A stretch of 64,000 nucleotides of DNA, taken from positions 63,606,677 to 63,670,676 of the forward strand of contig JAKTNV010000009.1 in NCBI GenBank assembly GCA_022747635.1, in the 5' to 3' direction. Numbering within the stretch: the first letter of the stretch is position 1; each line of letters begins with the position of its first letter. The notes below the pieces were generated by a model. That model saw only the letters and a list, made by a program, of their open reading frames with translations, was not told the origin of the DNA and ran no database searches. This document shows, piece after piece, positions 10,324-44,870 of this stretch. This DNA is from Hetaerina americana (taxonomy: Eukaryota; Arthropoda; Insecta; Odonata; Calopterygidae). The translations under genes and the position numbers were made by a program.

Positions 10324-10335
10324 TAAAAACCCTCT
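10324..10335. other. Left 12-bp direct repeat flanking the tRNA-like array (putative target-site duplication)
   Basis: TAAAAACCCTCT occurs here and again exactly at the right edge of the array (13590-13601). The terminal T overlaps the first base of the unit, so the true duplication is 10 to 12 bp. Confidence 0.75.
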
Positions 10336-10440
10336 GACAAATTCCAAGGAACTGCGGGAGATGCCGCAACAGTAACTTTTAACGGAGTCATCCGCTAATG
10401 TGCATTTCAATGCAACAATTTCAGAGCGTAAAAATCATTC

Positions 10441-10512
10441 GCCTTGACTGGGACTCGAACCCAGATCCCTCAATATCCGGTCGAGTGCTTTAGCCACTTA
10501 AGCTACCGAGGC
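10441..10512 (-). tRNA. tRNA-like gene, copy 1 (GGA in anticodon position)
   Basis: The sequence folds as a complete cloverleaf: acceptor GCCTCGG/TCAAGGC (one C-A mismatch, one G-T pair), T8A9, D stem GCTT/AAGC, anticodon stem CTCGA/TTGAG with 7-nt loop CCGGATA, 4-nt variable loop, T stem CTGGG/CCCAG with loop TTCGAGT, and discriminator G at 10440. A box TAGCTTAAGTGG and B box GGTTCGAGTCC are intact, so Pol III transcription is plausible. The anticodon position reads GGA (serine), but there is no long variable arm, position 33 is C instead of T and 37 is T. A decoding tRNA-Ser is therefore unlikely; I call it a tRNA-like promoter or pseudo-tRNA. Confidence 0.6.
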
Positions 10513-10773
10513 GTCCTCTTAAACTCTGAAATTTTGGGGCTTTTAAAGGAACTAGATGTTATGACGATATACCGTACATACAATGTCACATGTATTCGTA
10601 GTCGTGCGCGAGGCGCCACTGTCCACGAGGTTAAAGCCAACTTTAAACACGTATGGTGTTTTCCCTTTGACAAATTCCAAGGAACTGCGGGAGATGCCGC
10701 AACAGTAACTTTTAACGGAGTCATCCGCTAATGTGCATTTCAATGCAACAATTTCAGAGCGTAAAAATCATTC

Positions 10774-10845
10774 GCCTTGACTGGGACTCGAACCCAGATC
10801 CCTCAATATCCGGTCGAGTGCTTTAGCCACTTAAGCTACCGAGGC
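10774..10845 (-). tRNA. tRNA-like gene, copy 2
   Basis: Same sequence as copy 1, 333 bp further on; both Pol III boxes intact. Confidence 0.6.
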
Positions 10846-11106
10846 GTCCTCTTAAACTCTGAAATTTTGGGGCTTTTAAAGGAACTAGATGTTATGACGA
10901 TATACCGTACATACAATGTCACATGTATTCGTAGTCGTGCGCGAGGCGCCACTGTCCACGAGGTTAAAGCCAACTTTAAACACGTATGGTGTTTTCCCTT
11001 TGACAAATTCCAAGGAACTGCGGGAGATGCCGCAACAGTAACTTTTAACGGAGTCATCCGCTAATGTGCATTTCAATGCAACAATTTCAGAGCGTAAAAA
11101 TCATTC

Positions 11107-11178
11107 GCCTTGACTGGGACTCGAACCCAGATCCCTCAATATCCGGTCGAGTGCTTTAGCCACTTAAGCTACCGAGGC
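11107..11178 (-). tRNA. tRNA-like gene, copy 3
   Basis: Same sequence and register as copy 1 in the 333-bp array. Confidence 0.6.
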
Positions 11179-11439
11179 GTCCTCTTAAACTCTGAAATTT
11201 TGGGGCTTTTAAAGGAACTAGATGTTATGACGATATACCGTACATACAATGTCACATGTATTCGTAGTCGTGCGCGAGGCGCCACTGTCCACGAGGTTAA
11301 AGCCAACTTTAAACACGTATGGTGTTTTCCCTTTGACAAATTCCAAGGAACTGCGGGAGATGCCGCAACAGTAACTTTTAACGGAGTCATCCGCTAATGT
11401 GCATTTCAATGCAACAATTTCAGAGCGTAAAAATCATTC

Positions 11440-11511
11440 GCCTTGACTGGGACTCGAACCCAGATCCCTCAATATCCGGTCGAGTGCTTTAGCCACTTAA
11501 GCTACCGAGGC
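11440..11511 (-). tRNA. tRNA-like gene, copy 4
   Basis: Same sequence and register as copy 1 in the 333-bp array. Confidence 0.6.
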
Positions 11512-11772
11512 GTCCTCTTAAACTCTGAAATTTTGGGGCTTTTAAAGGAACTAGATGTTATGACGATATACCGTACATACAATGTCACATGTATTCGTAG
11601 TCGTGCGCGAGGCGCCACTGTCCACGAGGTTAAAGCCAACTTTAAACACGTATGGTGTTTTCCCTTTGACAAATTCCAAGGAACTGCGGGAGATGCCGCA
11701 ACAGTAACTTTTAACGGAGTCATCCGCTAATGTGCATTTCAATGCAACAATTTCAGAGCGTAAAAATCATTC

Positions 11773-11844
11773 GCCTTGACTGGGACTCGAACCCAGATCC
11801 CTCAATATCCGGTCGAGTGCTTTAGCCACTTAAGCTACCGAGGC
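11773..11844 (-). tRNA. tRNA-like gene, copy 5
   Basis: Same sequence and register as copy 1 in the 333-bp array. Confidence 0.6.
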
Positions 11845-12105
11845 GTCCTCTTAAACTCTGAAATTTTGGGGCTTTTAAAGGAACTAGATGTTATGACGAT
11901 ATACCGTACATACAATGTCACATGTATTCGTAGTCGTGCGCGAGGCGCCACTGTCCACGAGGTTAAAGCCAACTTTAAACACGTATGGTGTTTTCCCTTT
12001 GACAAATTCCAAGGAACTGCGGGAGATGCCGCAACAGTAACTTTTAACGGAGTCATCCGCTAATGTGCATTTCAATGCAACAATTTCAGAGCGTAAAAAT
12101 CATTC

Positions 12106-12177
12106 GCCTTGACTGGGACTCGAACCCAGATCCCTCAATATCCGGTCGAGTGCTTTAGCCACTTAAGCTACCGAGGC
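12106..12177 (-). tRNA. tRNA-like gene, copy 6
   Basis: Same sequence and register as copy 1 in the 333-bp array. Confidence 0.6.
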
Positions 12178-12438
12178 GTCCTCTTAAACTCTGAAATTTT
12201 GGGGCTTTTAAAGGAACTAGATGTTATGACGATATACCGTACATACAATGTCACATGTATTCGTAGTCGTGCGCGAGGCGCCACTGTCCACGAGGTTAAA
12301 GCCAACTTTAAACACGTATGGTGTTTTCCCTTTGACAAATTCCAAGGAACTGCGGGAGATGCCGCAACAGTAACTTTTAACGGAGTCATCCGCTAATGTG
12401 CATTTCAATGCAACAATTTCAGAGCGTAAAAATCATTC

Positions 12439-12510
12439 GCCTTGACTGGGACTCGAACCCAGATCCCTCAATATCCGGTCGAGTGCTTTAGCCACTTAAG
12501 CTACCGAGGC
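12439..12510 (-). tRNA. tRNA-like gene, copy 7
   Basis: Same sequence and register as copy 1; last full minus-strand copy before the inversion junction. Confidence 0.6.
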
Positions 12511-12771
12511 GTCCTCTTAAACTCTGAAATTTTGGGGCTTTTAAAGGAACTAGATGTTATGACGATATACCGTACATACAATGTCACATGTATTCGTAGT
12601 CGTGCGCGAGGCGCCACTGTCCACGAGGTTAAAGCCAACTTTAAACACGTATGGTGTTTTCCCTTTGACAAATTCCAAGGAACTGCGGGAGATGCCGCAA
12701 CAGTAACTTTTAACGGAGTCATCCGCTAATGTGCATTTCAATGCAACAATTTCAGAGCGTAAAAATCATTC

Positions 12772-12778
12772 GCCTTGA
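12772..12778 (-). pseudogene. Truncated tRNA-like copy at inversion junction
   Basis: Only the last 7 nt of the acceptor 3' strand (GCCTTGA on plus) of an eighth minus-strand copy remain before the sequence switches to junction filler. Confidence 0.7.
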
Positions 12779-12813
12779 GTTTAGAGTTTAGTAGTTTAGA
12801 ATTTCAGAGTTTA
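12777..12813. other. Inversion junction with templated-looking filler
   Basis: GAGTTTA occurs at 12777-12783 and 12784-12790, GTAGTTTA at 12791-12798, then the native unit sequence CAGAGTTTAAG follows (GAGTTTA at 12807-12813). The filler is thus made of short copies of sequence lying just beyond the break, which suggests error-prone end joining or template switching. Confidence 0.65.
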
Positions 12814-12820
12814 AGAGGAC

Positions 12821-12892
12821 GCCTCGGTAGCTTAAGTGGCTAAAGCACTCGACCGGATATTGAGGGATCTGGGTTCGAGTCCCAGTCAAGGC
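12821..12892 (+). tRNA. tRNA-like gene, copy 8 (inverted part)
   Basis: Same 72-nt cloverleaf as copy 1 but on the plus strand, first unit after the junction. The 10-bp inverted repeat lies at 12800-12809 and 12907-12916. Confidence 0.6.
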
Positions 12893-13153
12893 GAATGATT
12901 TTTACGCTCTGAAATTGTTGCATTGAAATGCACATTAGCGGATGACTCCGTTAAAAGTTACTGTTGCGGCATCTCCCGCAGTTCCTTGGAATTTGTCAAA
13001 GGGAAAACACCATACGTGTTTAAAGTTGGCTTTAACCTCGTGGACAGTGGCGCCTCGCGCACGACTACGAATACATGTGACATTGTATGTACGGTATATC
13101 GTCATAACATCTAGTTCCTTTAAAAGCCCCAAAATTTCAGAGTTTAAGAGGAC

Positions 13154-13225
13154 GCCTCGGTAGCTTAAGTGGCTAAAGCACTCGACCGGATATTGAGGGA
13201 TCTGGGTTCGAGTCCCAGTCAAGGC
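13154..13225 (+). tRNA. tRNA-like gene, copy 9
   Basis: Plus-strand copy, 333 bp after copy 8, same sequence. Confidence 0.6.
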
Positions 13226-13486
13226 GAATGATTTTTACGCTCTGAAATTGTTGCATTGAAATGCACATTAGCGGATGACTCCGTTAAAAGTTACTGTTGC
13301 GGCATCTCCCGCAGTTCCTTGGAATTTGTCAAAGGGAAAACACCATACGTGTTTAAAGTTGGCTTTAACCTCGTGGACAGTGGCGCCTCGCGCACGACTA
13401 CGAATACATGTGACATTGTATGTACGGTATATCGTCATAACATCTAGTTCCTTTAAAAGCCCCAAAATTTCAGAGTTTAAGAGGAC

Positions 13487-13558
13487 GCCTCGGTAGCTTA
13501 AGTGGCTAAAGCACTCGACCGGATATTGAGGGATCTGGGTTCGAGTCCCAGTCAAGGC
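13487..13558 (+). tRNA. tRNA-like gene, copy 10
   Basis: Plus-strand copy, 333 bp after copy 9. The block ends 31 bp past it at the right direct repeat. Confidence 0.6.
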
Positions 13559-13589
13559 GAATGATTTTTACGCTCTGAAATTGTTGCAT

Positions 13590-13601
13590 TAAAAACCCTC
13601 T
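13590..13601. other. Right 12-bp direct repeat flanking the tRNA-like array (putative target-site duplication)
   Basis: TAAAAACCCTCT, identical to 10324-10335. Its first bases overlap the unit's own GCATT, so up to two bases could be microhomology. Confidence 0.75.
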
Positions 13602-15745
13602 CTTTATCACACCTAATTTCTGTTCTATGTAAGGTTCTTCATCATTGATCGTTCAATCCTAAGATTGGTTGATTGCAGCCCTCCATTCTTCCCTATCTGA
13701 TGCTAATTGGCTTACTTTCCGGTATTTTTGGTGATGTACTTTCTTCTTTATTTGTCCAATGCACTTATCCCTTGGCTATTCCCTTGGGACTTTTCCCTCT
13801 ATTTTTCCTTCTATAATGTTCTTTACGAATCTATTGTGCCTTAGGGTGTGGCCAGTCATTTGGTTCTTCTTTTCTTTGCAGTTCTCCATAAGGTCCGTTC
13901 TTTGTCTATTCTTCTGTATACTCCTTCATTTTTTATTTTATTTGTCCATTTGATCTTAAGCATCCTCATCAAGCACCAGGTTTCCAACGCTTCTAGTCTT
14001 TTCTGGTCTACTTTTCCGATGGTCCATACTTCTGATCCTTAGAGTGCCACCCTCCATACAAATGCTTTCATGTACTGTTTCCTCGTTCGTATTTCTTTGA
14101 ACACTGCATTTGGCTTTTCATTGTGAATGCTCTCTTATCTTGAGTTATTCTCCAATTCATATCTGTACTTCTTCCGCCCCATGTGAGGGTACATCTACAT
14201 CAACATAATACCCCGCAAGGGCGTGAGACGGGGGGTGTTAGGTCACCACCTATAAAAGGGAACGAAATTACATGCATAATCAAAAATACATTCAAACCTA
14301 TTCCCACATTGACGTAAACATGCAAACAAAAATCCTTTCATTTTATACATACAAATACATTTTATGACAAAAAATTGCATCTCGGGATGCAATAAAAAAT
14401 TGTCCAAAAACATGCAAGCTATAATTTGAAAAGAAAGAAGGTGAAATTCCACTACCACATGGACGTAGCATACAGCGGTCTCCTCCCCCATGGACCCAGA
14501 TTGGGAATGAGATCCAACGGTCCGACTTCACCTATCTCGGTACTTCCGTGATAAGTGAAGTTGCTCTAATTTTTATCCTTTCAGTCTAACTACTGCATTC
14601 CACTTCTCAACTCCACATTCCAATTTGTCTTGTTTATTTTCATGTTGTATCTTTGTAGAACTTGATCCAATTCATTTAGAGCCCTTTGAAGATCCTCCTG
14701 GTTTTCTGATATCCATGCAATAACGTCGACGAAGCGTAGTATGTTTATCTCTTCACCAATGATCCTAATTCCGTTTAATCCGATGCATTGTGCTTCTCTT
14801 ATTGCTTCCTACAGGTACCTGTTGAAAAATATGGGTGAGAGGTTGCATCCTTATCTAACTTCTTTGTTGATTCTAGCTTCAATATGACTTCCATTTCTCA
14901 TTCCCATTGTGGCTACTTGCTTCTAGTATAGCTGATCTTCTATCGTTGTAATCTATTCCGAGTTTTTTCGGCGGTCCAAACATCTTCCATTCCACATTGT
15001 TGAAGGCTTTCTCCAAGGCTACGAATGCCACATACAGTTGCTGGTTCGCATGCATTGTTATCTCTATCACGATTCTTAAACTGAGTATGTCTTCCCTGGT
15101 TACTCTTTTCTTCCTAAAGCCACATTGGTTTTCCGATAGGTCATCTTTAATTTTCCTTTCCACCCTTCGACTTATTATTCACGTAAGTATTTTTGATGCA
15201 GGAGATACAAGACTCATGATTTGGTGTTCCTCACATTTCCCTGTCCTCGTCTTCTTTAGTATCGCGATCATCACACTTCTTTGATAGCCTTCATGAAGTA
15301 TTCCGTCTTTGTAGCTATCTTTGATTATTCCATACAGATTGTCCTTGGCTTTGTGCCCGGGTGCCTTGATGATGTCACCGTTAGTTTTGTCTTCTTCATC
15401 AGGTATGTTTTTCTCAAGGTCTTTTCATGCTCTATCGAATTCACTCCTCAGTATGTATGGGCCCTGGTTATCGTCATCCGTTTCACTCTCATCCTTCAAC
15501 AGTTTTTCTTCCAGCGGCCTCGGACCTTGGTAGAGTTCTTCGATGTCTAGCTTCCATCTATTACCTATATCTTCACCTTCTATCAGTACATATAAATCCC
15601 CATATAAATCCCTGATGTAATTGCTTTTCATTTACCTTCTCCGAAATGTTGCTTCACCTGTTTTTATGCTGTGTCGTTGATTTTCTCGCAGCAGCCTTCT
15701 ATCCAGTTCTCCCTAGCCTTTTTGCATTCTCAGTTGACTTTGTTC
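13602..15745 (-). pseudogene. Decayed RTE/BovB-like non-LTR retrotransposon, 5'-truncated
   Basis: The minus strand, read across frameshifts and stops, gives a LINE reverse transcriptase from its N-side to its end. About 15425-15631 holds a stretch with LRSEFDRA. Next come LVSPASKILT, ENQCGFRKKRVTRED (about 15100) and YVAFVALEKAFNNVEW (the AFxD-type A motif has Asn for Asp). RFVDVIAW follows (decayed FADD catalytic box, about 14730), then FTYHGSTEI (about 14540) and GSEVWTIGKVDQKRLEALE (about 14000). The usual DREEWRAAINQS ending stops at 13659-13661. A short 3' UTR runs to the array edge. Catalytic aspartates are lost and several stops are present, so it is dead. It is interrupted by the repeat at 14184-14485. 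Clade assignment rests on the C-terminal signature and is tentative. Confidence 0.85.
14184..14485 (-). repeat. Dispersed 0.3-kb repeat, copy 2, inserted in the LINE
   Basis: Minus-strand copy of the family at 302-594. It is flanked by a 7-bp direct repeat CCCCATG (14177-14183 and 14486-14492). The LINE reading frame can be followed on both sides (FTYHGST to the right, GRSTDMNWRI to the left), so this is a true insertion younger than the LINE. The 3' end again shows the GGTGACCTAACACCCCC block and a GTAGATG tail. It has no coding capacity; the 82- and 62-codon minus frames over it are incidental. Confidence 0.75.
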
Positions 15746-29330: not shown

Positions 29331-29769
29331 TTATTCGTATTAACACGAAATTAAACATAACAAATATATTCATGCGCTAAATTCCTTCCACTCAGAATTC
29401 ATTTTTTCGGCCTACCCCACTATACATGTCCTAAGACTGCACATGTGCAAGCGTAGCTGCTGGAGAATTGGGATGGTCAGCTTTAGACAAATAGAAAAGA
29501 CAGAGTTGTACTCTGTCACCAATGCATGCCAAGTTATTAGCGAAGGAAATTGTGAACGATTAGGAAATAGACAGAAGTATCGTAGAAATTGAAGTATATG
29601 GCAAATTTATGAAATCTATTAAATTTGTGGATAATCAATCTTCTGTTGGCCAGTCAATCAAACGATTCCTATCATTATTATACCAAGTCAAATATGCCAA
29701 AATGGGAGTTAGCCGCTAATTTTCGCCAAATTGAACACAATTCACATGGACACGAACTAGGATCCCTCA

Positions 29770-29880
29770 ATCTTCGTGAAATTAAGTGATCCGGGTTTCC
29801 CAGTCTCAGTCAACGTGAATGATTTTTACACTGGAAATTTCTGCATTGCGGAGCAAATTAAAGCAGTAATTTCATGGATA
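29770..29880 (+). repeat. Diverged solitary relic of the 333-bp tRNA-like unit
   Basis: GTGATCCGGGTTTCCCAGT, then CAGTCAAC, then GTGAATGATTTTTACACTG, GAAATTTCTGCATTG and GCAAATTA align in order with the 3' half of the tRNA-like gene and its right flank in the array (compare 12870-12945). Many substitutions are present, the tRNA 5' half is unrecognisable and the B box is destroyed. It shows that the unit, or its ancestor, is dispersed and older than the array. Confidence 0.6.
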
Positions 29881-33622: not shown

Positions 33623-36157
33623 CATATGTTTTATGAATTTTATCTATATAATTCAAAATGTACAAAAAATTACATTAAAAATAGCATTAATACAGTTTTT
33701 ATTTAGAATGACGTAGCTGTATAAATGCGAGTAAAGTTTTCATTACTTACAGTTAACAAATTCGAGATAAGCACAAACAAATTAATTGAATTCATTATCA
33801 ATTATGTTAATTTCTCAGATATTTACATCAGAGGAAAACAGTTCCAAGCCAGATGTCTTATTGGTTCATTTAATTAAATTATTTAGTCCACCACAATGCT
33901 GCACGTGTTCTCAAAATCTGATATATTTCAAATAATTTATGAAAATGTAGAGGACAAAATATTTTCGGATTAACAGTCTGCAATAAATTTTGAGATTCTG
34001 TTCTTGGAAGCAAGATATGATATTGGAATGTGCAGAAAATTATTGGAATCTCTTTCGCCCGGTTCTAAATAAAGTTATTTATTAAATTACATCCGGAAAA
34101 TCACAAAAATGTAGGATAAGATTAGTTTCACATGCCATTTAAAAATTATCACCGGGTGAATTAAAATGGAAAAATTTAATTATTCAAACACAAAAGCTTA
34201 ATGTATTTTTTGGCACGGTCAACTAATATTCTTAAATACTTTTTAAAACGAAAATATAATATTCATGTCATGCGGGAAGACAAATTCCCGTTCGAAGTTT
34301 TCAAATCCGTTTTAATTTTACTGAATCGTTTTCAAGCATTTTCCATCATCCCTTAATTATTTGCGAAACGAATTCCTTTAAGATTTGAGATCACTTGTAG
34401 CAAACGTAAGGTGCCAAATTGTCGACCAATTCGGAAAACTTTACTCAGTAATTAGGCCAAATTACCTCCATGACTTATGAAACATGAACGGGAGACATGG
34501 ATATCCATCTTACTTATTCTCAACAGCTTACGCCTTGTGTCTTCACTATAGTAACTACACTGACACTTCACGACGGGTTACAGTGGGGCTGAAGGGTGTC
34601 ATGGGTAGGAAATACACAGTTTCACGAACTTCCAACTTGTAAGTGAGTAACACTTGAGCTTCCGTTCCACTGCAAACAAACTCTAAGCGCGAGTTTCATT
34701 GGAAAACCTATTAAAACTTGTCTAATGGGTACATAGTAGTATATACTTCATCTATAAGGTGTAGAATTGTTTCTTCCGGACATTTTAAATAGATAGTGCA
34801 AAATTAAATTTTTATTTTATACCTTTTTTTCTTATATTTATACCTATATTTTTATTTTATACCTATACCTATATATCCTATCCTATCCTATATATCTTAT
34901 TATCTCACCAATAAATAGTAGCACACAAATATATTTAATGCGGTTCATATAGTGCCAAGAAAATTGATATTTATTGGAAAATATGAGGCGAGATTATTTT
35001 CAATCTAGAAAAGTTCATAGCAAAATTAAAAAAAAGTGTCTGCGTCTTTTCTATTATTTTTGGGGATGCAATCTAAATCATACCTACTGCTAAGAATTTT
35101 AACGCAACTCTTGTCAATTATTGTTATTGGAAAATACATTAGTAATGCATACGGCGCAACAAATAAATATATAGGATTGGAAAAAGGAGCCATGGGAAAA
35201 TTACTCTGCTAACTTAGACTGCATGAAAAAACTCAGCAAGATATGGGATTATTCATACGGAGGCTTTTTACACTCAGCCGATCAGGCCCTTTTTAAATTC
35301 ACCCAAAGGCACTCGGCAGGAGTTACAGTTACCCTTGCAAATTGTGCGCTAGCTCTGAAGTACCGTAGGGCTGAAGACCCTGGCTAAGACTAGATTATTC
35401 ATTCCAGTTGAAACAATTTGCGGTTGGAACTATAGTTAATAATAATATGCTTATAATATTAACCATGTTATATTCCACTCTTTTAGGTCTTAAAAAGAAC
35501 AAAGCGTAAGACATAAGATGAGATGATACAACGTTGATGATTCAGGGAAAATGACATACAGGCCCTCTCCAAAAGTATAGGAATAATGCAATATATAATA
35601 TAATACATTTAGTCCAGGTGTGATTTTTGATCGAATTTTAATTTATCAAGAAATATAAAAATATAATCTTTTTATGTGGGCTGTCTCAGTAAATACTCAT
35701 AAACAAAATGAAAAATCTTTTTGTGGTGGAGACATAAAAAAAGCGTTCAAGTTTACAACAGGCATTTGTGTAAAAATCTTATGTCCGATCGTATCAGTGG
35801 GCGATTGATCTAATCTTTCATCTCAGAAACATGTACGGGTCGGAAATATATAACGCGGAAGTTATGAGATAATCTGTTTTGCCGGTTATTTTACTGTTCA
35901 GGCAATATTATATGTTATACACCCTCTATTATTATCTCCCAACCATAAAGTTACATAAACAATGATGTTTTTTGGTTATTTTACTGATCAGTCAAAATTC
36001 ATCGAAGGACTCTTGGTTCAGCTTTCCAAAACCAATCTAAAAGTGAGCATTGTGGATTATGAAGGGATTTTTGATATTTTTTGTTCATCAAAACGTCAGA
36101 ACATTGGTCTTTTATTTTTACTAGTATTATAAGTAAGTCCATCTTTGTCCATCTTTA
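33623..36157. other. AT-rich intergenic sequence
   Basis: No gene seen. Around 34810-34905 there are imperfect TTTTATTTTATACCTA and TATCC repeats. Confidence 0.4.
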
Positions 36158-36203
36158 TTGAACTTAAAATTAAACCACTTGGCTTTTCCACATAATAACT
36201 TTT

Positions 36204-36248
36204 ATTTACGACCTAGGTTTCGTTATGGTATAACATCATCAGGTCAAT
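36204..36248 (-). ncRNA. Hammerhead-ribozyme-like motif (Penelope type), minus strand
   Basis: On the minus strand: stem I 5' side ATTGAC, core CTGATGA, one extra T, stem II GTTAT-ACC-ATAAC, then GAAA, the palindromic ACCTAGGT and C (the GUC cleavage triplet), then stem I 3' side GTAAAT. Stem I pairs at 5 of 6 positions. A palindromic, nearly absent stem III fits the hammerheads reported from Penelope-like retroelements that act as dimers. The unpaired base before stem II departs from the textbook core, so activity is uncertain. Confidence 0.5.
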
Positions 36249-36254
36249 CCTGAG

Positions 36255-36287
36255 CTGATGACGTTATACTATTACGAAACCTAGGTC
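36255..36287 (+). ncRNA. Hammerhead-like motif, plus strand, degenerate
   Basis: The CTGATGA core (36255-36261), GAAAC (36276-36280) and CTAGGTC are present. Stem II has mismatches, and the sequence before the core (CCTGAG) does not pair with that after the cleavage site (GTAAAAG). Probably inactive. Confidence 0.4.
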
Positions 36288-36340
36288 GTAAAAGAAAGTT
36301 ATTTATGTGGAAAAGCCAAGTGGTTTAGTTTTCAGTTCAA

Positions 36341-37406
36341 TACGAAGAATTTCCACGAAGTGACGCCAGAAACTGTTTTATTCATATTTAGTAATGTTTT
36401 AACTCAGCACGTTCACTTTAAAATAGCATATTTGATAAATTACCCATTTCTCGAAATCTGTTTATCCTTTTCGATGAATGCAATAATTGCTGACAACACT
36501 CATGTAAAATATTTCTAGTAGCTAACTTATTTATCTTTTCATCAGAAAATTGATCAAGCTTGCTTTAGATCTTTTAAACAAATTTCCCTTTCTTCCAATT
36601 CGCAAAATAATTGTTTCTCATAATCATTATTTATATCAAAAAACAAGCTTGATTTGAATGAATAAACAAATTCTTTTGATATAATTTCATTGAAAAGCTA
36701 GATTTCGCCGTTTTACTTACAGGGGAAATTATTTCTACACTAAAACATAAGGTTGCAACGACGGATAGCTGACTACCATCACGTGTACCCTATGCACAAG
36801 GGTCAATCAATCCTGGTCGAGAATTTTGAATGTCATTAGTAAAGAAGTTAATTGGGTCTGAATCGCGACCCCAACGAGACGTGAATGACTCGACTAATGA
36901 TGGGTATAATGTGGCCCCAAATGGCATAGGATATGGACAAGAAGTGTGCATTTGTTGGGGATGGAAGGTAAACTTGGAACGGAGCTGCTGAATGACAAGT
37001 GAGGGTAAACAAAGGGGAAGGTATAAAAAAGACGGGATATGAAATTGCATAGTATACAACTGGCGAAACAATTCGCCCAGAATGATCACCAAGTTTCCCA
37101 AAAATAGAAAACTCATACTTCACTCATCCCATGGCTTTCATGTATGCCTTAAAAAGTACGTTAATATACTTTTGGAGGCAAGGAAACACTCCAGGTATAT
37201 ATGTCTTGAATACATTTTCGTAACGGCAATAAGACTATTTAATAATGGGTTTTCAACAAACAGCATTAAAAAATTACACGAAGTGATATCAAAAACAGTT
37301 TAATCAAACGACGTAATCTTATTTTCTAAATAAAGGAGATGAATTATGTCTTAGATGGTGTCTGGCTCAACTTTGTGGAAGTTCCTGTTCATGAAATGAA
37401 AAATCA
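36341..37406. other. Intergenic sequence
   Basis: No recognised gene; overlapping minus frames at 36790-37123 carry no domain. Confidence 0.4.
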
Positions 37407-43480: not shown

Positions 43481-44154
43481 ACTTCAGCTCCACATGTCCA
43501 TCCAATATACCCTCCCACCACCTTGCCTTAACTCCAACGATACGAGCATCCGCAATGTTTCCAAGCGTCAAGAACCCTACGTCGATTCTTTTTCTGTTGC
43601 TTTAATCCATCCTGCCGTGGATTATAAAAATGCACGATGGCCCATTTTCAAAAGCGTGCATTCCCATCAAAAATATTAACGACCATGACACACGTCTTCC
43701 CGCAGAGCCTGTTTGCAAACTACATTCATGTCTCCGTTTTATGATTTATTCCGCAGTGAATCGAATCTATATTATTGATGGGATGGCCATTACCAATGAA
43801 AGCCTTCAAAACCGTCAATCGCAATTGAAATCCAAGTGACACAGTCATAGAAGAAGCAGGCACTCAGCGTTATATTTTCTATTTGAAATGCTTCCATACA
43901 TTTGAATGAGGGCCTTTCAATTTCAGTACATTCGTTTGTTCAATTTTTTTGTCTTTACTAAACATAAAATCTGAAGTCACCTGACTAAAAACTTTCAAAC
44001 CAAATTTGACGGTTTAAAATATTATGCATTTTGAGTTTTTACAACCAATAAAATTAGTAGGTATTGGAAGTAATTCAAATATTTCTGCAACTTAATAAAT
44101 ACTGAGAAACCATGGGATGCTGCAGAATGGAATGGGAGGGAGAATGTAAACCCG
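43481..44154. other. Intergenic sequence
   Basis: No recognised feature. Confidence 0.4.
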
Positions 44155-44363
44155 CCATGTGGCGAACAAATATTCATTCGTATGGAAATAGATATAAGGA
44201 AAAGAGATAGGAACACACACAAAGGACGAACACAGGAGAGGCAAGGAAGATGGAATCGAGCAGATCACAAATGTAAAAATACTTCTCAGAGCGGGACTTG
44301 AACACCGCATTTTTCGACTTGCCGGGCTGATGCTCCAACTACTTGAGCTAGAGAGGAGACGTA
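44155..44363 (-). mobile_element. tRNA-derived SINE (family with CCGGC loop), copy A
   Basis: Minus strand: a tRNA-like head with A box TAGCTCAAGTAGTTGG (44335-44350), D stem GCTC/GAGC, CCGGCAA in the anticodon-loop position and B box GGTGTTCAAGTCCC (44293-44306). The body contains TTGTGATCTGCTCGATTCCA, CTATCTCTTTTCC and ATATCTATTTCCAT. It is the most complete head of the three copies in this cluster. Confidence 0.75.
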
Positions 44364-44539
44364 ATTTACACTGAAACCTGCGGGGGTTTATGTAAACTAG
44401 TGGCCCGATTCTTTGGCCTAGAGATTCTAGCTAATCGTGCCATGAAACGCACTGTTTCTATCATTTTTGACGTTGTATGATTGCTTTCCAAATGTCCTTT
44501 CCCCTGTGCCTTCTATTTCTTCATTAATATTCAAACACA

Positions 44540-44705
44540 TAAGGCTGTCATAGGGTGAGCATATACTCATTCACATAGAAATAGATATAAAGCAAAGGGA
44601 TGGGAGCACAGATAAAATACGAACAAAAGAGAAGAGGGGAAGGCGAAATCGAGCAGATCACAAGTGCAAAAATATTTTCTAAACCGGGAATTGAACCGCG
44701 GATTT
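44540..44705 (-). mobile_element. Same SINE family, copy B, head-truncated
   Basis: The plus-strand order GAAATAGATATAA, GATGGGAGCACA, GAACAAAAGAGAAG, GAAATCGAGCAGATCACAAG, GGGAATTGAACCGCGG repeats copy A about 390 bp later. The head ends at the B box, where copy C begins in the opposite orientation. Confidence 0.7.
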
Positions 44706-44706
44706 T

Positions 44707-44870
44707 AGTAGAGAGTTAGAACATCGGCCCGGCAAGTCGAAAGATCCGTGGTTCAAGCACCGGTCACGGAAATATTTTTGCACTTGTGAACTGCTAGATT
44801 CCGTCTTCCCCCACTCTCATACGTTCGTCTTTTTTCTTACTCCTATCTCTTCCAAGTGAATGATATTAGA
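44707..44870 (+). mobile_element. Same SINE family, copy C, inverted
   Basis: Plus strand: a partial head (GGCCCGGCAAGTCGAAAGAT, B box GGTTCAAGCACC) followed by TTTTTGCACTTGTGA, CTAGATTCCGTCTTCC, ACGTTCGTC and CCTATCTCTTCC. These are the same body blocks as copies A and B, in opposite orientation. Copies B and C are back to back at about 44706. Confidence 0.7.

What the first reader, a model, noticed from the sequence alone, without database searches (positions are those of the whole stretch)
10324..13601. A 3.25-kb array of tRNA-like-containing 333-bp units inserted as one block with a 12-bp target-site duplication
Seen: seven full 333-bp units in one orientation, then about 2.5 in the other, all apparently identical, bracketed by TAAAAACCCTCT on both sides. 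A plain satellite would not be expected to have a target-site duplication around the whole array. Known: SINEs and other LINE-mobilised RNAs leave such duplications. Inference: a preformed multimer, or an extrachromosomal circle derived from a tRNA-like satellite, was captured in one insertion next to a LINE 3' end. A mobile satellite of this type, with ten Pol III promoters in opposing directions, is not an element class I know.
Basis: partly seen in the sequence, partly recalled or inferred. Interest (0 to 1): 0.85.

Follow-up and report, generated by a model that had tools for sequence, protein, structure and literature searches.

The report
Penelope-type mobile arrays with tRNA-like units
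The block is one young copy of a dispersed mobile element that inserts as a tandem array of tRNA-like units in two opposite arms, in the way a Penelope retrotransposon of the same genome inserts itself, so a small hitch-hiking repeat appears to use that kind of enzyme.

Summary
In detail: 7.3 identical 333-bp units one way, 21 bp of filler, 2.4 units the other way, between 12-bp direct repeats. It is not a one-off satellite capture. The same unnamed 1.63-Gb genome holds a dispersed family: 1054 first-look candidates, 40 scored, 39 loci by my grouping, all 39 read. 30 of 39 have two arms head-to-head (tRNA-like 3' sides outward), none tail-to-tail; in 26 of these 30 one outer end lies near unit position 105 and the other near 175. 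14 of 35 testable loci have perfect flanking repeats of 10 bp or more, against 0 of 1190 mismatched pairs. In eight young arrays nearly all copies share the array's own variants. A resident Penelope-like element (851-aa open frame, RT plus GIY-YIG) inserts with the same anatomy: head-to-head arms, two 3' ends ~45 nt apart, mostly 12-bp duplications. Best reading: a non-autonomous, hammerhead-less, tRNA-bearing tandem element moved by Penelope-type two-ended target-primed reverse transcription, probably from a circular or multimeric RNA. LINE mobilisation is disfavoured. Helper identity and a circular template are inferred.

The parts
10324..10335 (.). Target-site duplication, left copy (TAAAAACCCTCT)
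   Evidence: Only two copies in the window; other loci have their own different 12-15-bp repeats
10336..12778 (-). Left arm, about 7.3 head-to-tail 333-bp units, tRNA-like sense on the minus strand; outer end near unit position 177 (end 'B')
12779..12799 (.). 21-bp non-unit filler at the head-to-head junction
12800..13589 (+). Right arm, about 2.4 head-to-tail units, tRNA-like sense on the plus strand; outer end near unit position 103 (end 'A')
13590..13601 (.). Target-site duplication, right copy (TAAAAACCCTCT)
12821..12893 (+). tRNA-like domain of one unit (one of ten); a T5 run at unit position 79 follows it, upstream of end A (about 105)
29706..29860 (.). Degraded relative: sense piece 29774-29860 (nhmmer E 2.6e-7) preceded by a weak antisense piece 29706-29776 (E 0.24), so head-to-head only tentatively
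44148..44867 (.). Old locus of a second tRNA-bearing family (unit about 442 bp in other copies), with pieces in both orientations; right limit approximate

Best explanation
The block is one young insertion of a non-autonomous retroelement family with a 333-bp unit (tRNA-like domain at 1-73, T5 run at 79, hairpin-rich 3' region with two reverse-transcription start sites, A about 105 and B about 175). A Penelope-type protein (RT plus GIY-YIG endonuclease) cuts both target strands 12-13 bp apart at a symmetric AAN/NTT site. It uses both freed 3' ends as primers on tRNA-sense RNA, starting at A on one side and B on the other, and copies 5'-ward, often through several units. The two cDNAs are then joined head-to-head with microhomology or filler. 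Shown by sequence: dispersed family, fixed ends, head-to-head arms, duplications, clonal units, same anatomy in a resident Penelope-like element. Inferred: that a Penelope-type protein, and this family in particular, is the helper; that the template is RNA; that it is a circle or a clonal multimer. The role of the tRNA-like part is unknown; my guess is processing or ligation of the RNA, because the T5 run should stop a Pol III transcript before A and B (terminator rule recalled).
For: (1) 39 loci: 30 head-to-head, 0 tail-to-tail, 1 same-direction, 8 with one mapped arm. (2) 26 of 30 head-to-head loci have one A end and one B end. (3) Duplications: 14 of 35 with a perfect repeat of 10 bp or more vs 0 of 1190. 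In 21 loci that I picked from the 27 listed, lengths are 12 (10), 13 (9), 14 (1), 15 (1), three of the 21 with one mismatch; target symmetric: A at -3 and -2 in 17 and 17 of 21, T at +2 and +3 in 16 and 15 of 21. (4) Eight young arrays (chosen for many copies; 15 positions trimmed at each arm end) differ from each other at 9 unit positions; both arms carry the array's own variant, with single-copy departures only at 161-165 in L056 and L057. (5) 30 of 60 arms exceed one unit, maximum 3030 bp. (6) Resident Penelope-like element: RVT_1 and GIY-YIG in one 851-aa open frame. Among all 136 GIY-YIG matches, neighbours within 6 kb are 28 '-+', 1 '++', 0 '+-' (within 20 kb one '+-' is added). 7 of 7 fetched copies head-to-head, 6 of 7 with ends at two sites about 45 nt apart, perfect 12-bp duplication in 4 (one of them A/T-rich and simple), 15 bp in 1, 16 bp with one mismatch in 1, none found in 1. 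(7) PMC11167929 (main text read): a Penelope-like protein cuts and extends both strands, prefers ATT, starts inside the RNA, and the genomic 'tail' lies between two start sites. PMC3846280 (passages): head-to-head pLTRs, partial tandems, 8-10-bp duplications.
Against: The unit shows no similarity to the resident element's own body, so the helper is named by anatomy only; other Penelope families of the genome were not compared. The unit lacks the hammerhead that this element has. The spacing between ends is about 70 nt here against about 45 in the resident element and 30-40 in print. 4 of 30 head-to-head loci do not show the A/B pair, and 8 of 39 loci have only one mapped arm, mostly old (L021 has a few further bases like end B). 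Only 40 of 1054 candidates were scored, best first. The six Penelope copies were chosen because one search showed them as '-+' pairs. No RNA data, no empty site.
Confidence: 0.82

Rival explanations
1. LINE-mobilised multimeric RNA with twin priming: a LINE protein copied a tandem tRNA-like transcript, and twin priming made the inversion.
For: Duplications of 12-15 bp and 5' inversions are also LINE features (recalled; PMC2912911 seen only as the start of its abstract in the listing). A LINE-like 3' end abuts the window copy.
Against: By recall, inversion is occasional in LINE copies, but here 30 of 31 two-armed loci are head-to-head; one end at A and the other at B in 26 of 30; no A-tail or simple tail at the ends listed (L055 aside); symmetric AAN/NTT target. 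The resident Penelope-like element shows the same set.
Confidence: 0.06
2. DNA-level origin: an extrachromosomal circle or rolling-circle DNA of the unit was inserted.
For: Clonal head-to-tail units in each of eight arrays tested.
Against: Does not predict two fixed outer ends, a constant head-to-head polarity, or 12-13-bp duplications at a symmetric site.
Confidence: 0.05
3. A short Penelope-type insertion followed by local unequal exchange, so that the long array is secondary.
For: Tandem arrays can expand and homogenise (established knowledge); PMC10702118 describes SINE-derived satellites (abstract and discussion read).
Against: Young copies are the longer ones: median 1222 bp in 16 loci at 97.5% identity or more, against 442 bp in 9 loci below 90% (Spearman 0.44 over all 39), partly confounded because best-scoring candidates were read. 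Both arms, in opposite orientation, share the same variants, which direct exchange within one arm would not give.
Confidence: 0.1
4. Helenus-type TRIM: a small LTR retrotransposon with a tRNA-like sequence in its LTR, present as tandem LTR-internal units.
For: tRNA-like sequence in a small non-coding element (PMC10886601, parts 1-2 of 6 read).
Against: Animal Helenus makes 4-bp duplications; here 12-15. Head-to-head arms with variable junctions are not LTR features (recalled).
Confidence: 0.02

Closest known systems
Penelope-like elements (Penelope/Poseidon type, GIY-YIG endonuclease)
   Same: Head-to-head inverted arms, partial and full tandems, two alternative 3' ends ('tail'), AT-rich target, duplications of about 8-15 bp; a resident family shows these
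   Different: The 333-bp element has no long coding frame in the unit, no hammerhead core, carries a tRNA-like domain, and often inserts as many short clonal units
Metazoan non-LTR retrozymes (PMC7229834 passages; PMC7761336 passages and section 9)
   Same: Non-coding tandem units of 170-400 bp, duplications longer than 4 bp, multimeric insertions, suspected Penelope helper, circular RNA template proposed
   Different: Retrozymes are defined by type I hammerhead ribozymes; none found here. Fixed ends plus head-to-head arms are not reported in the passages I read
tRNA-derived SINEs and SINE-derived satellites (PMC10702118, abstract and discussion)
   Same: tRNA-like domain, dispersed non-coding element
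   Different: A T5 run lies between the tRNA-like domain and the 3' ends; no A-rich or simple tail at the ends listed; two-armed insertions with two fixed 3' ends
Helenus TRIMs (PMC10886601, parts 1-2 of 6)
   Same: tRNA-like sequence in a small non-coding retroelement
   Different: LTR elements with 4-bp (animals) or 5-bp (fungi, plants) duplications
Schistosome W-elements (PMC8490949, passages)
   Same: Satellite-like units that appear mobile, one reported candidate duplication
   Different: Some families hammerhead-bearing, W-chromosome repeats; no two-armed anatomy in the passages read

Membership tests
Non-autonomous Penelope-like element | Head-to-head inverted arms | tested here: met
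   30 of 31 two-armed loci, 0 tail-to-tail, 8 further loci with one mapped arm
Non-autonomous Penelope-like element | Two alternative 3' ends ('tail') | tested here: met
   26 of 30 head-to-head loci with ends A and B, about 70 nt apart; 30-40 nt in print (PMC11167929), about 45 in the resident element
Non-autonomous Penelope-like element | Target-site duplication at AT-rich site | tested here: met
   resident element 12 bp in 4 of 7 copies
Non-autonomous Penelope-like element | Sequence shared with an autonomous member | tested here: not met
   blastn of the unit against L092 and L078-L091: only separate 333-unit insertions near two of them. Other Penelope families of the genome not compared. 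So it is filed as 'works like', not as a derivative of this family
Metazoan retrozyme | Type I hammerhead ribozyme | tested here: not met
   No CTGANGA core on either strand of the unit; no hammerhead at E<=10 in Rfam over 841 bases of the right arm
Metazoan retrozyme | Circular RNA | not testable with these tools
   No transcript data
tRNA-derived SINE | Pol III transcript running from tRNA head to element 3' end | tested here: inconclusive
   tRNA fold 46.2 bits but T5 at unit 79 precedes ends A and B; transcription not measured
tRNA-derived SINE | Single 3' tail (A-rich or simple repeat) and one orientation | tested here: not met
   27 loci whose ends are listed, L055 in (AT)n aside
Helenus TRIM | 4-bp (animal) or 5-bp duplication and paired LTRs | tested here: not met
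   12-15-bp duplications in 21 loci; LTR, PBS and PPT not searched for by tool
Satellite DNA | Long arrays without insertion boundaries | tested here: not met
   Longest of 39 loci is 5.7 kb with its own duplication (L057); only 40 of 1054 candidates scored, so a large array elsewhere is not excluded

The most novel reading that the evidence does not exclude
A tRNA-like module stands where retrozymes and Penelope-like elements carry a hammerhead: a ribozyme-free mobile RNA circle, processed or sealed by tRNA-handling enzymes, is copied round and round by a Penelope reverse transcriptase from both ends of one double cut, so that insertions are born as clonal two-armed arrays.
Probability: 0.35. 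Interest if true: 0.9.

Novelty: new variant of a known kind. Interest (0 to 1): 0.74.

Why it matters
The retrozyme review read here says that animal retrozymes show no motif that would reveal which autonomous element moves them (PMC7761336, section 9). This family gives such evidence for a retrozyme-like tandem element: two fixed start sites, head-to-head arms and the same kind of duplications as a resident Penelope-like element. Arm length, start site and junction can be read at each copy (39 read here, many more candidates), which makes the little-known Penelope mechanism testable from genome sequence. It also shows that some short 'satellite' arrays with tRNA-like genes are insertions, so tRNA gene counts in such genomes can be inflated: ARAGORN calls ten tRNA genes in this one block.

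Tried and rejected
Hammerhead in the unit: none. Helenus, SINE, satellite and LINE readings: see membership test and rivals. Relatives in prokaryote and viral collections with a 21-base pattern: 7 and 2 stretches, not followed; I judged them near chance by a rough estimate, not by a control. Sequence link between unit and the resident Penelope-like element: none; units found near L079 and L081 are separate insertions. Domain check of the neighbouring LINE-like stretch: no informative hit. Tail stability: the 95-185 stretch folds better than most shuffles but not strikingly (21 of 300 shuffles at least as good). The second family first looked like a 393-bp tandem in the window; copies from the genome fit a ~442-bp unit, so 393 bp is not its true period. 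In that family 16 loci were fetched of 40 scored, some chosen because a second piece showed: 6 head-to-head (L066, L072-L076); in L067 a 45-bp piece lies in the opposite sense about 110 bp away; it sits in (AT)n, so duplications cannot be judged. My first pair count used a hand-picked part of the list; one search repeats it on all 136 matches with the same result.
Full report
Observation. The window block was read base by base. It is 3,254 bp between two perfect 12-bp repeats: a left arm of about 7.3 units with tRNA-like sense on the minus strand, 21 bp of filler, and a right arm of about 2.4 units on the plus strand. Units show no mismatch inside an arm, and the arms agree at 591 of 592 compared bases. 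ARAGORN and Rfam see ten tRNA folds. The label tRNA-Ser is ARAGORN's; a real tRNA-Ser would have a long variable arm (recalled), so I treat it as tRNA-like.

The genome. A search of the window's own assembly (1.63 Gb, 1580 contigs, unnamed) answered once for the unit: 1054 first-look candidates, 40 scored, 111 matches that I group into 39 loci. All 39 were read: the window copy plus 38 fetched with flanks. Five were refetched longer because the array ran off, or came near, the edge of the first stretch.

Anatomy of the family. Mapped to the unit in tRNA sense (position 1 = first base of the tRNA-like fold), 30 of 39 loci have two arms with the tRNA-like 3' sides pointing outward, none has the opposite arrangement, 1 has two pieces in the same direction and 8 have a single mapped arm. 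In 26 of the 30 head-to-head loci one outer end lies at 100-115 and the other at 160-185 (exceptions L029, L047, L050, L060). The inner ends, at the junction, are scattered over the unit, with overlaps or filler. In these 30 loci arms run from 34 to 3030 bp, and 30 of 60 exceed one unit.

Duplications and target. Of 39 loci, 35 had both ends clear of the edges in the first fetch. Of these, 14 have a perfect direct repeat of 10 bp or more at the ends (13 without the (AT)n locus L055), against 0 of 1190 left-right pairings between different loci. The extended loci L056-L059 add 13, 12, 13 and 12 bp; L060 has none. In 21 loci picked from the 27 listed (six dropped; three of the 21 with one mismatch) lengths are 12 (10), 13 (9), 14 (1) and 15 (1). 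The site is symmetric: A at -3 and -2, T at +2 and +3, each in 15-17 of 21. That is what two like cuts on the two strands would leave.

Clonality. Eight young arrays, chosen because they hold many copies, differ from one another at nine unit positions (15 positions trimmed at each arm end). Both arms of each array carry that array's own variant. Departures are single copies at positions 161-169 in L056 and L057, next to an indel, and one private base each in L022 and L023; four arrays (window, L018, L019, L058) show none. So each array appears to be copied from one unit sequence. A circular template explains this directly. A transcript of an already clonal array would also do, but cannot by itself lengthen arms, which a lasting family needs (inference). 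Young loci are longer (median 1222 bp, n=16, at 97.5% identity or more) than old ones (median 442 bp, n=9, below 90%), which speaks against slow growth after insertion; reading the best-scoring candidates may exaggerate this.

The enzyme. A search for GIY-YIG in the same genome gave 3696 first-look candidates, 150 scored, 136 matches, many with one identical score, and open frames up to 851 aa. Over all 136 matches, neighbours within 6 kb are 28 '-+', 1 '++' and 0 '+-'. One copy (L092) has RVT_1 and GIY-YIG in one 851-aa frame, three copies of a hammerhead-like core CTGATGA...GAAAC (motif recalled, not called by Rfam), an inverted arm, a direct terminal repeat and a 12-bp duplication. Six more, chosen from the '-+' pairs, were fetched. 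All 7 are head-to-head, 6 of 7 end at two sites about 45 nt apart, and duplications are 12 bp (4, one of them a simple A/T string), 15 bp (1), 16 bp with one mismatch (1) and none found (1). The tRNA-bearing element thus inserts like this Penelope-like element, though the two share no sequence that I could find.

Literature. PMC11167929 (main text read): a purified Penelope-like protein cuts and extends both strands, prefers ATT, starts inside the RNA, and the genomic 'tail' is the stretch between two start sites. PMC3846280 (passages): head-to-head as the most frequent inverted arrangement, partial tandems, 8-10-bp duplications. PMC7229834 (passages) and PMC7761336 (passages and section 9): metazoan retrozymes are hammerhead-bearing tandem units of about 170-400 nt, expressed as circles, with no known helper. 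PMC10886601 (parts 1-2 of 6): Helenus TRIMs. PMC10702118 (abstract and discussion) and PMC8490949 (passages) for SINE-derived satellites and W-elements. Eight full-text searches listed no paper, as far as the titles and abstract starts shown tell, on a tRNA-bearing Penelope-mobilised element; only open-licence papers are held and lists were cut at 12-25 rows, so this is not proof of absence.

Mechanism. Shown: family, ends, polarity, duplications, clonality, matching anatomy. Inferred: RNA template in tRNA sense (the head-to-head polarity fits two cDNAs each started towards the 3' side), Penelope helper, circular template. A Pol III transcript should stop at the T5 run (unit 79; terminator rule recalled) before both start sites, so the tRNA-like part is unlikely to be a plain promoter for the template. 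It lies just 5' of the start sites, as the hammerhead-like core lies 5' of them in L092 (1542 against 1635 and 1683). Two 10-base complementary stretches flank the tRNA-like domain (313-322 and 87-96); whether they matter is untested.

Limits. Best-scoring sample only; unnamed species; no RNA; no empty site; no long reads; the Penelope copies fetched were chosen for their paired layout.

Noticed in passing
window 36156-36342: Inverted repeat (88% over 188 bp) whose two halves each carry a hammerhead-like core (CTGATGA...GAAAC at 36254 + and 36242 -), head-to-head; Rfam at E<=10 names no hammerhead there. Possibly a Penelope-type terminal piece.
   Followed up: partly
window 37411 (+): A further hammerhead-like core. 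Pattern CTGANGA-N7-20-GAAAC has 8 hits in 240,457 bases of window and fetched loci (some overlapping), 5 of them CTGATGA; four are followed by ...TGGAAAA. No shuffled control was run.
   Followed up: partly
window 44148-44867; L062-L077: Second, more numerous tRNA-bearing family (4616 first-look candidates, 40 scored), unit about 442 bp, inserted in (AT)n; 6 of 16 fetched loci head-to-head; ends near 406 and 442 in L072, L073, L075 and L076.
   Followed up: partly
L079 1-346 and L081 2975-3115: 333-unit insertions found by accident in 2 of 14 GIY-YIG loci (about 45 kb in all), suggesting more copies than the 1054 candidates.
   Followed up: no
unit positions 313-322 and 87-96: Ten-base complementary stretches enclose the tRNA-like domain and could close a stem round it in a circle or multimer.
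   Followed up: no
window 13602-14190: LINE-like 3' end in antisense, with several stops, abutting the right duplication.
   Followed up: partly
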